From contig NZ_CP004353.1 in the NCBI RefSeq assembly GCF_000550805.1, positions 1,612,001 through 1,676,000 on the forward strand: a stretch of 64,000 nt of DNA, read 5' to 3'. A program made the position numbers and the translations under genes. The notes below the pieces were generated by a model. That model was not told where the DNA came from. It did not search any database and saw only the letters and a program-made list of their open reading frames with translations. Of this stretch, positions 41,026-42,936 are shown piece after piece. Position 1 is the stretch's first letter, and the number at the start of each line of letters is the position of its first letter. This DNA comes from Corynebacterium vitaeruminis DSM 20294. Lineage in GTDB: Bacteria; Actinomycetota; Actinomycetes; Mycobacteriales; Mycobacteriaceae.

Positions 41026-41141
41026 GTTTCCCTGGTCCGAGGACCTAGAAACTCACGCCGAAAAGTCGCCGCAAACCGGTTGCGATTTGCTGGTGCATGA
41101 GCGATTTCCGCCTAGTGTACCACTGATTGACAAAAGTCTAG
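41026..41141. repeat. 116-bp target-site duplication, left copy
   Basis: Base-for-base identical over 116 bp to 42821-42936 and directly abutting the left end of the IS. Contains the small palindrome GGTCC-GA-GGACC and a minus-strand TACACT (41119 to 41114) that could promote mihF. Confidence 0.9.
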
Positions 41142-42820
41142 CCCGAGTTAGGTCAGATTAGTGCCGAAATTAGGGTTGGAGGATTTTGGTGACGATGGCT
41201 TGGGTGTCAGCGGGTAGCGGTGTCGCGGCGTGGATGGCGCGGCCGGCGACGGTGAGTTCGAAACTCCGGTACTTTTTCAAGGTTCTCACGAGTCGTTTGA
41301 TGGTTTCCCCTGTGGCGTTTTCCATCATTTTGCTGATCGCGAGTGCAGCCATCACGATGTTGAGGTGAGCGTTGATGGAGTCGTGCTTGCGCGCGTATAT
41401 CGGCCTGGCCTGGAGGTCTGATTTTGCCATCCGAAACGACCGCTCAATGTTGAGCAGTCGACGGTACATCCCCAACACATCAGAAGCAGACATGCTGGTC
41501 AGGGTGGTTTCGTATCCTTTGATTCCTGCTAGCTGCCGGTGTTTGGCAGCGAGTGTGAAGTTGACTTGTTTGTTCGGGGCTTTCAAATCAACGTAGCGAT
41601 TGCGTTTGATGGCTACCTCACCGTTGACAGCACGCTTGGCTTTGGCGAGCTGCTCGTCGATCCCACGGACGGTTCGCCTAGCTCGATCAAACGAGTAGTG
41701 ATAATGCGTCACCGAGTTCGGGGTACCGCTTTGACGTCCGTCGGAAAACGACGGCTGTGACCAGATCTGCCCGTGGGTGTACTCCAGTCCGGGATGTTGA
41801 CGTACCCAGGAGGCAATAACCTCAGGCACGTTGGGCACTTTGGTGGACAAAATATAGTCCAGACCAGCATCGATAATCGCTTGCTTGTTACCAGCAGAAA
41901 ACATGCCCGCATCAGCGACGACAGTGACCTCGTTTAAGTTGTAGGCCTGCTGGAAAGCTCGAATCATCGGCAGCATCGTGTGCGTTTCTGCTTTGTTGCC
42001 TTCGAACGCCCCAATATGCAGTGGAAAACCGGTTTGGTCGGCGAGCAACCCGACCAAGATTTGGGGTTCGACTCGCCGTTCTTTGGAGTACCCAGATTTG
42101 CGAAGATCATCCGGGGTGTCAGTTTCGAAATACAAGGTCGTGACATCGTAGAGAATGAAACTTCCCCGACCAACACCTGCGTGACGAGCCAAGCACTGGG
42201 ACAGGATTTCCCGGAAATCATCCGTCGCGTACCCGGGTAGTCGGCGTTGGATCGTTTTGTAGCTTGCCGACGCAACACCTACTTCCGCAAGAGTTTCAAT
42301 CGAGTCCAATTTCGATCCGGGTTGGATAATCCGAGCCCTGACTAGATCCAAAAACACCTGATCGTCACCGGTTGCAACATCCAAACCAAGCCGCTGGTAA
42401 CACGCGTCAATACAGTCAAGTAGATACCCGGCCTTCTGCCCCGTCACCGGGAGTGGATTGTCCTTCGAACCGGATCCGCCTAGGGCTGTGCCCAAGCCCC
42501 CTAAGGGGAGATCTAAGACCAGCTGGTCCCCGTCGATGATGCGCTGCGCTTGAGCCTTTAACAACGACAATTCATGCTCATCGTGAGCTGATCCGACATG
42601 CCGCAGCGTCTTTTTGCCCGCATGCTCACCAAAAACAACTTGCACAGCGGTAGCCCCAGAAGCAGTCTTCACAGTACGGACATAGGGACTCATAAAAGAT
42701 CACACTAACAGCTACCCCCACGACCGCACCCTTAGTGCCGAAAAACCACCACCAACCAACACAAACCACCAGGTCAACACGTCAAGGACTAATATGTCAC
42801 ACCAAAATGACCTAAGTCAG
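41142..42820 (-). mobile_element. IS1634/IS1549-like insertion sequence
   Basis: 1679 bp with one intact transposase gene. Ends are imperfect inverted repeats: left CCCGAGTTAGGTCA, right (complement, counting the shared G at 42821) CCTGACTTAGGTCA, 12 of 14 identical. Flanked by a perfect 116-bp direct repeat. Inserted between pyrF and mihF without damaging a gene. Long, variable target duplications are known for IS1634 and IS1549, supporting the family call made from the transposase. Confidence 0.88.
41170..42693 (-). CDS. IS1634-family transposase
   Basis: Intact DDE transposase of 507 aa. Candidate catalytic residues are Asp183 (ILYDVTTLYFE), Asp261 (VVADAGMFS) and Glu417 in YRRLLNIERSFRMAK, matching the IS4-superfamily E-x6-K spacing. 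The start MSPYVRTVKTASGATAVQ is typical of actinobacterial IS1634 relatives. No frameshift or stop. The stop codon lies 28 bp from the left end and the ATG 127 bp from the right. GC and codon use look lower than the neighbours, suggesting transfer. Confidence 0.9.
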   Translation of the reverse strand: MSPYVRTVKTASGATAVQVVFGEHAGKKTLRHVGSAHDEHELSLLKAQAQRIIDGDQLVLDLPLGGLGTALGGSGSKDNPLPVTGQKAGYLLDCIDACYQRLGLDVATGDDQVFLDLVRARIIQPGSKLDSIETLAEVGVASASYKTIQRRLPGYATDDFREILSQCLARHAGVGRGSFILYDVTTLYFETDTPDDLRKSGYSKERRVEPQILVGLLADQTGFPLHIGAFEGNKAETHTMLPMIRAFQQAYNLNEVTVVADAGMFSAGNKQAIIDAGLDYILSTKVPNVPEVIASWVRQHPGLEYTHGQIWSQPSFSDGRQSGTPNSVTHYHYSFDRARRTVRGIDEQLAKAKRAVNGEVAIKRNRYVDLKAPNKQVNFTLAAKHRQLAGIKGYETTLTSMSASDVLGMYRRLLNIERSFRMAKSDLQARPIYARKHDSINAHLNIVMAALAISKMMENATGETIKRLVRTLKKYRSFELTVAGRAIHAATPLPADTQAIVTKILQP

Positions 42821-42936
42821 GTTTCCCTGGTCCGAGGACCTAGAAACTCACGCCGAAAAGTCGCCGCAAACCGGTTGCGATTTGCTGGTGCATGAGCGAT
42901 TTCCGCCTAGTGTACCACTGATTGACAAAAGTCTAG
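42821..42936. repeat. 116-bp target-site duplication, right copy
   Basis: Identical to 41026-41141. Its minus-strand TACACT (42914 to 42909) points into the IS toward the transposase start, so insertion may have given the element an external promoter. Confidence 0.9.

What the first reader, a model, noticed from the sequence alone, without database searches (positions are those of the whole stretch)
41026..42936. Intact IS with a perfect 116-bp target-site duplication
The 116 bases on each side of the element (41026-41141 and 42821-42936) are identical. The 1679-bp element between them has inverted ends that match at 12 of 14 bases and a full-length transposase. Nearly all IS make duplications of 2-14 bp. 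IS1634 and IS1549 are the known exceptions, with duplications up to hundreds of bp. Zero mismatches mean a recent insertion. The extreme staggered cut and its repair are poorly understood, so an intact young copy is valuable.
Basis: partly seen in the sequence, partly recalled or inferred. Interest (0 to 1): 0.75.

Follow-up and report, generated by a model that had tools for sequence, protein, structure and literature searches.

The report
IS element with 115-bp target duplication
This is a young, complete jumping gene of the known IS1634 family that duplicates a long, variable stretch of its landing site each time it inserts, and comparing 77 such insertions suggests how: each end of the element seems to be joined at its own ordinary 5-base site, tens to over a thousand bases apart.

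Summary
Confirmed, with a one-base correction: the element is 1680 bp (41142-42821) and the duplication 115 bp. The genome carries four identical copies with exact, unrelated direct repeats of 57, 115, 212 and 432 bp. The transposase scores far above the NCBIfam IS1634 cut-off. Long variable duplications are already known for IS1634 and IS1549, so this is a new member of a known kind. Of 100 distinct related insertions with both ends resolved, 77 have long repeats (23-1267 bp; eight exceed the published 514), 9 have 5-8 bp and 14 have none. Two IS-free plasmid relatives of one Rhodococcus insertion hold the duplicated stretch once. New: both ends of the long repeats carry the signature of an ordinary 5-bp target (T at +1, A at +5), seen again in insertions collected afterwards. 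Two 100% identical elements in one genome have a 5-bp (TCAAA) and a 44-bp repeat. Best model: two separate single-end joinings at two 5-bp sites, then strand-displacement repair. No helical phasing or replication-direction bias was found. Exchange between two nearby ordinary insertions predicts the same signature and is not excluded. The window copy's own empty site could not be tested.

The parts
41142..42821 (-). IS1634-family insertion sequence, 1680 bp, one of four identical copies in the genome
   Evidence: four places, no difference; NCBIfam IS1634 model
41027..41141 (.). left copy of the 115-bp target duplication
42822..42936 (.). right copy of the 115-bp target duplication
41142..41155 (.). 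left terminal inverted repeat CCCGAGTTAGGTCA
42808..42821 (.). right terminal inverted repeat (reads CCTGACTTAGGTCA on the minus strand), 12 of 14 matching the left
41170..42693 (-). transposase, 507 aa, DDE domain; D183, D261, E417, Y410 and K424 conserved in 36 of 36 aligned relatives (catalytic role inferred)
42508..42525 (-). QLVLDL, transposase residues 57-62: a conserved Q-x-x-L-x-L/F motif that resembles sliding-clamp-binding motifs (untested; pattern set after seeing the alignment)
   Evidence: in 57 of 60 distinct clade transposases of 480 aa or more; 11% in shuffled controls
42822..42826 (+). 5-bp target site used by the right end (TTTCC: T at +1, no A at +5)
41137..41141 (-). 5-bp target site used by the left end (CTAGA on the minus strand: A at +5, no T at +1)

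Best explanation
An IS1634-family DDE insertion sequence whose transposase recognises a 5-bp target (T-N-N-N-A by preference) but usually does not join both ends there. In most insertions one end is joined at one 5-bp site and the other end, on the opposite strand, at a second 5-bp site tens to over a thousand bp away. Strand-displacement synthesis from the two target 3' ends then fills both strands and leaves the whole stretch between the sites as a direct repeat. When both ends join at one site the repeat is 5 bp. When the second join falls on the other side, the result is an insertion without repeat, with loss of DNA. Shown: family, exact long variable repeats, one single-copy empty site in a relative, the 5-bp signature at both ends, identical elements with 5 and 44 bp. 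Inferred: the order of joins, the repair, and the deletion outcome.
For: Family: NF033559 E=1e-100, 338 bits against a cut-off of 100. Four identical copies with exact repeats of 57, 115, 212 and 432 bp. 100 distinct insertions with both ends resolved: 77 long (23-1267 bp, median 128; 74 of 77 exact), 9 short (5-8), 14 none. Empty site: Rhodococcus plasmids L209 and L210 hold the repeat of L200 once (96-bp overlap of the two flanks). Signature in the first 60 insertions: T+1 66/120, A+5 60/120, against 25.4+-4.3 and 25.3+-4.5 at random positions of the same DNA; 17 insertions collected afterwards: 13/34 and 16/34 against 7.5+-2.3 and 7.6+-2.4; together z = 8.7 and 8.0 in 152 sites. It holds in Corynebacterium (57 and 54 of 102) and elsewhere (22 and 20 of 46). 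Both ends contribute equally (T+1 40/77 right, 39/77 left) and show no correlation (both T 17, expected 20.3). 5-bp duplications carry the same pattern (TCAAA, TCTGA, TCCGA). L106 and L107, 100% identical over 1679 bp in one genome, have 5 and 44 bp. The 14 copies counted as repeat-less show T+1 14/28 and A+5 14/28; 9 and 10 of 20 without two near-repeat and two Mycoplasmopsis copies (my recount of its rows). No 10.5-bp phasing (p = 0.4-0.5).
Against: The signature is not perfectly symmetric: A at +3 is enriched at the left end (28/59) and not at the right (15/59). T+1 and A+5 co-occur only weakly within a site (46 against 39 expected, Fisher p = 0.025 over all; p = 0.73 in the later set). In the window copy itself neither site has both letters. 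The same signature would arise from exchange between two nearby 5-bp insertions. Lengths of 9-22 bp are absent, as steric exclusion would predict, but a lognormal fit expects only 2.1 there (chance of none 0.12). No null was run for the repeat-less copies. No biochemistry was done, and the window's own empty site could not be tested.
Confidence: 0.6

Rival explanations
1. Two ordinary 5-bp insertions of the same element at nearby sites on sister chromosomes, followed by unequal homologous exchange between them, leave one element flanked by the stretch between the two sites.
For: It predicts the same 5-bp signature just inside both ends of the repeat, and repeat-less reciprocal products.
Against: It needs two insertions within about 1.3 kb plus a crossover for 77 of 100 insertions, while 5-8 bp insertions, the supposed precursors, are 9 of 100. 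Independent insertions would give repeats spread over the whole genome, not 23-1267 bp; but my flanks could not show repeats beyond about 2 kb, and only 2 of the 14 repeat-less copies were checked for longer ones. All four copies in the window's genome would have had to do this.
Confidence: 0.12
2. The element inserts at replication forks or gapped DNA, where long single-stranded stretches let the two ends join far apart; a conserved N-terminal clamp-like motif brings it there.
For: A Q-x-x-L-x-L/F motif near residue 57 is present in 57 of 60 distinct clade transposases. An Acidiphilium IS1634 transposase binds the sliding clamp through a C-terminal motif (PMC4549789, passages seen).
Against: No bias of transposase direction with replication (28 of 47 co-directional, p = 0.24) and no ori-ter gradient (origin taken from dnaA, terminus assumed opposite). 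The A+5 preference fits a duplex 5-bp site better than single-stranded DNA. For the Acidiphilium element a legend lists 6-base sequences, called inverted repeats there, that I read as its target duplications. Five of six short-repeat elements examined in this clade carry the N-terminal motif too (L157 lacks it).
Confidence: 0.13
3. One concerted reaction with a very wide stagger on looped or wrapped target DNA.
For: It would explain long repeats in a single step; only the lengths themselves.
Against: No helical phasing of lengths at 10.5 bp, repeats of 41 and 698 or 786 and 1267 bp from identical elements, and a 5-bp signature at each end rather than one shared site.
Confidence: 0.08
4. The 116 bp is part of the element or a pre-existing tandem repeat.
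For: None found.
Against: Other copies have unrelated repeats; the 116 bp occurs only beside this copy; empty sites in L209 and L210 have one copy (another insertion of the family); no direct repeat of 40 bp or more in 29 related loci.
Confidence: 0.01

Closest known systems
IS1549 (Mycobacterium smegmatis) and IS1634 (Mycoplasma mycoides), IS1634 family
   Same: Long, variable-length direct repeats (8-514 bp according to PMC2266710, section read); IS1634-family transposase; 1500-2000 bp length class.
   Different: The original papers were not held and their sequences were not compared. Lengths in this survey reach 1267 bp. The 5-bp signature at both ends is not mentioned in the sections and passages I saw.
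Short-duplication IS1634 members
   Same: Same family model; 5-6 bp AT-rich duplications are given for the family in PMC2266710.
   Different: They join both ends at one site; here most insertions do not. In my tree the 6-bp elements L168-L173 and the 5-bp L149 lie outside the 33-row clade that holds this element, though on long branches; the 6-bp L164 and 5-bp L157 lie inside it.
Half-site integration by other DDE enzymes and the casposase (known to me by recall and from a paper listing)
   Same: One end joined without its partner.
   Different: There, as I recall, a partial or aberrant product; here it would be the usual route to a stable insertion.

Membership tests
IS1634 family | Transposase matches the IS1634 model | tested here: met
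   NF033559 338 bits, cut-off 100; next family 27 bits
IS1634 family | DDE transposase with Y, E and K of the YREK motif but usually without its arginine | tested here: met
   PF01609; D183, D261, Y410, E417, K424 in 36 of 36 and L413 in 33 of 36 aligned relatives; family rule from PMC2266710
IS1634 family | Length 1500-2000 bp and ends C-----YT | tested here: met
   1680 bp, ends CCCGAGTT / CCTGACTT; rule from Table 1 of PMC2266710 (passage)
IS1634 family, IS1549/IS1634 long-repeat group | Long direct repeats whose length differs between copies (most other family members: 5-6 bp) | tested here: met
   57, 115, 212, 432 bp, all exact
IS1634 family, IS1549/IS1634 long-repeat group | Clusters with IS1549 and IS1634 themselves in a transposase tree | not tested
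   Their sequences were not fetched; one Mycoplasmopsis relative (L226) is in the tree but on a long branch outside the 33-row clade, its place unsure
IS4 family (strict sense) | Full YREK motif and target duplications of about 10 bp | tested here: not met
   L413 in place of R; 26 bits to the IS4 model against a cut-off of 115; repeats 57-432 bp

The most novel reading that the evidence does not exclude
Long target duplications of the IS1549/IS1634 group are not made by one wide staggered cut but by two uncoupled single-end joinings, each at its own complete 5-bp T-NNN-A site; the ordinary 5-bp product is the special case where both joins hit one site. The long duplication often leaves an intact copy of the invaded gene on one side, making insertion gentler for the host.
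Probability: 0.58. Interest if true: 0.75.

Novelty: new member of a known kind. Interest (0 to 1): 0.6.

Why it matters
The element is of a known kind, but a 2008 review (PMC2266710) says that no mechanism had been proposed for these duplications, and my searches of an open-access library found none since. The end signature gives a concrete, testable one and names natural pairs for the test: identical elements with 5 and 44 bp (L106/L107) and 95%-identical elements with 5 and 93 bp (L190/L200). If right, stable transposition can proceed without coupled joining of the two ends, and the long duplication can spare the gene that is hit: at the three other copies in this genome an open reading frame that reaches into the repeat is full-length on one side.

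Tried and rejected
Helical phasing of repeat lengths: none at 10.5 bp. Replication direction and ori-ter position: no bias. AT-richness of duplicated DNA: same G+C as flanks, p = 0.67. Hidden repeats longer than my flanks as the cause of repeat-less copies: tested for 2 of 14; L096's flank is single-copy, L108's is confused by other repeats. A change of transposase lineage as the cause of short against long: L157, L164 and the mixed pairs L106/L107 and L190/L200 lie inside the long clade, and identical elements do both. Empty site of the window copy: not obtainable, best held pyrF match 72% identical. Empty site of L192: no other record; of L189: matches stop before the join, not pursued. L196 and L198: relatives hold one flank and only part of the repeat. 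Solved structures: no sequence match. Structure prediction was not run; it would not have decided the question. Phages: 3 records with distant partial matches.

Rows dropped before the counts: loci in which both ends could not be set with the end motif CC[TC]GA[CG]T or by hand (L041-L043, L045-L048, L105, L163, L166, L174-L182, L193-L195, L197, L250, L255-L257, L263-L267, L270-L272, and partial matches among L217-L230); copies cut by a contig edge or with doubtful ends (L037, L038, L044, L152); loci L050-L078 other than L055 (seen again in longer stretches, or partial); L231-L241, L268, L269 (seen again elsewhere); L200, the same insertion as L153. The end motif favours elements like this one. 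Seven resolved copies of distant family members with 5-6 bp (L149, L168-L173) are left out of the 100. Three further 5-bp copies (L191; L254; L275) were not entered among the 100. L079 (26 of 29 matching) and L247 (37 of 38, shifted one base) were counted as having no repeat. Three of the 77 long repeats have one mismatch. Two sites with N were left out of the position tables (118 of 120; 152 of 154).

Full report
What is there. The window holds a complete insertion sequence at 41142-42821 (1680 bp), with imperfect terminal repeats (12 of 14) and one transposase gene of 507 codons on the minus strand. The flanking 116-bp identity is real. Comparison with the three other copies assigns one G to the element, leaving a 115-bp duplication. 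The genome (2.93 Mb, one contig) has four copies with no difference over 1680 bp. Their exact repeats are 57, 115, 212 and 432 bp with unrelated sequences, and the window's repeat was found nowhere else in the genome. The host is a Corynebacterium: genome G044, listed as the same genus, has a contig with the length and match coordinates of the C. faecale plasmid NZ_CP047205.1.

Family. The transposase scores 338 bits to the NCBIfam IS1634 model (cut-off 100; next model 27 bits) and has a DDE domain. Its catalytic residues, inferred from conservation, are D183, D261 and E417, with leucine in place of the arginine of YREK, as PMC2266710 describes for most of the family (sections 8 and 14 read, other passages by search). 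That review gives 5-6 bp duplications for the family and 8-514 bp for IS1549 and IS1634, and states that no mechanistic model had been proposed.

Survey. I fetched relatives from the genus, order and phylum and from plasmid records and resolved both ends of 100 distinct insertions of this clade. Seventy-seven have long direct repeats, 23 to 1267 bp, median 128; 74 are exact, the other three have one mismatch each. Eight exceed 514 bp. Nine have 5-8 bp and 14 have none. No length falls between 9 and 22 bp; a lognormal fit to the long class expects 2.1 there, so this gap alone proves nothing. Members with long repeats occur in Actinomycetota, in a Campylobacterota plasmid (680 bp), in a Bacteroidota plasmid (406 bp) and in a Mycoplasmopsis record (43, 53 and 255 bp). 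The more distant members L168-L173 have 6 bp and L149 has 5 bp; they lie outside the 33-row clade in the tree, as does the long-repeat Mycoplasmopsis element, but long branches make these placements unsure.

Empty site. For a Rhodococcus pyridinivorans plasmid insertion (L200), two related plasmids without the element (L209, L210) align to both flanks (91-93% identity) with an overlap of 96 bp, the length of the exact repeat: it is present once. The two plasmids may be related to each other. The other attempts gave partial or no answers.

The signature. In the first 60 insertions, aligned at the two joins, position +1 inside the repeat is T in 64 of 118 sites and position +5 is A in 58 of 118 (66 and 60 of 120, which also uses the two sites left out for N). 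Random positions in the same DNA give 25.4+-4.3 and 25.3+-4.5 of 120. Seventeen further insertions collected afterwards give 13 and 16 of 34 against 7.5+-2.3 and 7.6+-2.4; without three AT-rich Mycoplasmopsis insertions 13 and 14 of 28 against 5.3+-2.0 and 5.3+-2.1. The later set is not wholly independent, since some come from genera and records already sampled. In 152 usable sites the two positions stand at z = 8.7 and 8.0; the next enrichments are A at +3 (4.1) and C at -2 (4.0). The A at +3 is a left-end feature, so the symmetry is imperfect, and the link between T+1 and A+5 within a site is weak (Fisher p = 0.025 over all, 0.73 in the later set). T on one strand and A four bases on is what a symmetric 5-bp target looks like, and it lies inside the repeat at both ends. 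The 5-bp insertions show the same pattern (TCAAA, TCTGA, CCTGA, TCCGA and others). The 14 copies counted as repeat-less carry it too (14 and 14 of 28; 9 and 10 of 20 without L079, L247 and two Mycoplasmopsis copies, no null run). The two ends show no correlation (both T in 17 of 77, expected 20.3).

Same enzyme, both outcomes. In one genome two elements identical over 1679 bp have a 5-bp (TCAAA) and a 44-bp repeat. Two Rhodococcus elements 95% identical have 5 and 93 bp. Identical copies elsewhere have 41 and 698, or 786 and 1267. On a C. faecale plasmid a 5352-bp composite of two such elements carries a 513-bp repeat, so long repeats also form when something three times longer moves.

Mechanism. 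The simplest reading is that each end captures a full 5-bp duplex site but usually only one strand is joined there; the other end is joined at a second site. Two 5'-staggered joins far apart can be repaired by strand-displacement synthesis from the two target 3' ends, which duplicates everything between. The opposite geometry cannot be filled and would lose DNA, which would fit the minority without repeats. This step is inference. Lack of 10.5-bp phasing, of replication-direction bias (28 of 47, p = 0.24) and of an ori-ter gradient (terminus assumed opposite the dnaA position) argue against a fixed looped complex or fork-directed insertion. The main rival, exchange between two ordinary insertions, gives the same sequences. 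It is disfavoured because presumed precursors are rare (9 of 100) and lengths stay below 1.3 kb, but only an experiment in a recA-deficient host can settle it.

Consequences. At the three other sites in this genome an open reading frame that reaches into the repeat is full-length on one side of the element: a glycine-transporter-like gene broken after about codon 127 in one copy but whole (247 codons) in the other (L002), an esterase-like gene whose last codons lie in the repeat (L001), and a short reading frame whose start lies in the repeat (L004, only a sub-threshold Pfam match). Whether this is selection or simple survivorship is open; it was not counted over the whole survey.

Clamp-like motif. 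A Q-x-x-L-x-L/F motif near residue 57 is present in 57 of 60 distinct clade transposases of 480 aa or more and in 11% of shuffled controls. The pattern was set after seeing the alignment, and its likeness to sliding-clamp-binding hexapeptides is recalled. PMC4549789 (passages) shows clamp binding by a C-terminal motif of another IS1634 transposase.

Limits. The original IS1549 and IS1634 papers were not held. Searches for a published explanation found none, but the library is open-access only and most results were seen as listings. Flanks limited the detectable repeat to about 2 kb (about 1.5 kb in some loci). The end motif used to find elements favours this clade.

Noticed in passing
L198 2195-7546 (C. 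faecale plasmid NZ_CP047205.1): Two identical IS1634 elements flank two SMR-family transporter genes and a TetR-type regulator as a 5352-bp composite transposon, with a 513-bp exact repeat outside it.
   Followed up: partly
window 42508-42525 (transposase residues 57-62) and relatives: A Q-x-x-L-x-L/F motif just before a variable linker is present in 57 of 60 distinct clade transposases; it resembles sliding-clamp-binding motifs (recalled), while PMC4549789 places such a motif at the C-terminus.
   Followed up: partly
L001, L002, L004 (other copies in the window's genome): Long duplications leave a full-length open reading frame on one side of the element although one join lies inside or at the edge of it.
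   Followed up: partly
   Followed up: no
G215 (L159-L162, L254): Five of six examined copies of one element have 5-bp duplications fitting YCNGR (the sixth, L163, was not resolved), while its relative in G592 (about 52% protein identity) has 64, 128 and 365 bp.
   Followed up: partly
G000 C1:916036, 924792, 1416596, 2098426, 2858559: Five equal-scoring DnaA-like ATPase fragments, probably IstB-type helpers of another IS family in the same genome (recalled interpretation).
   Followed up: no
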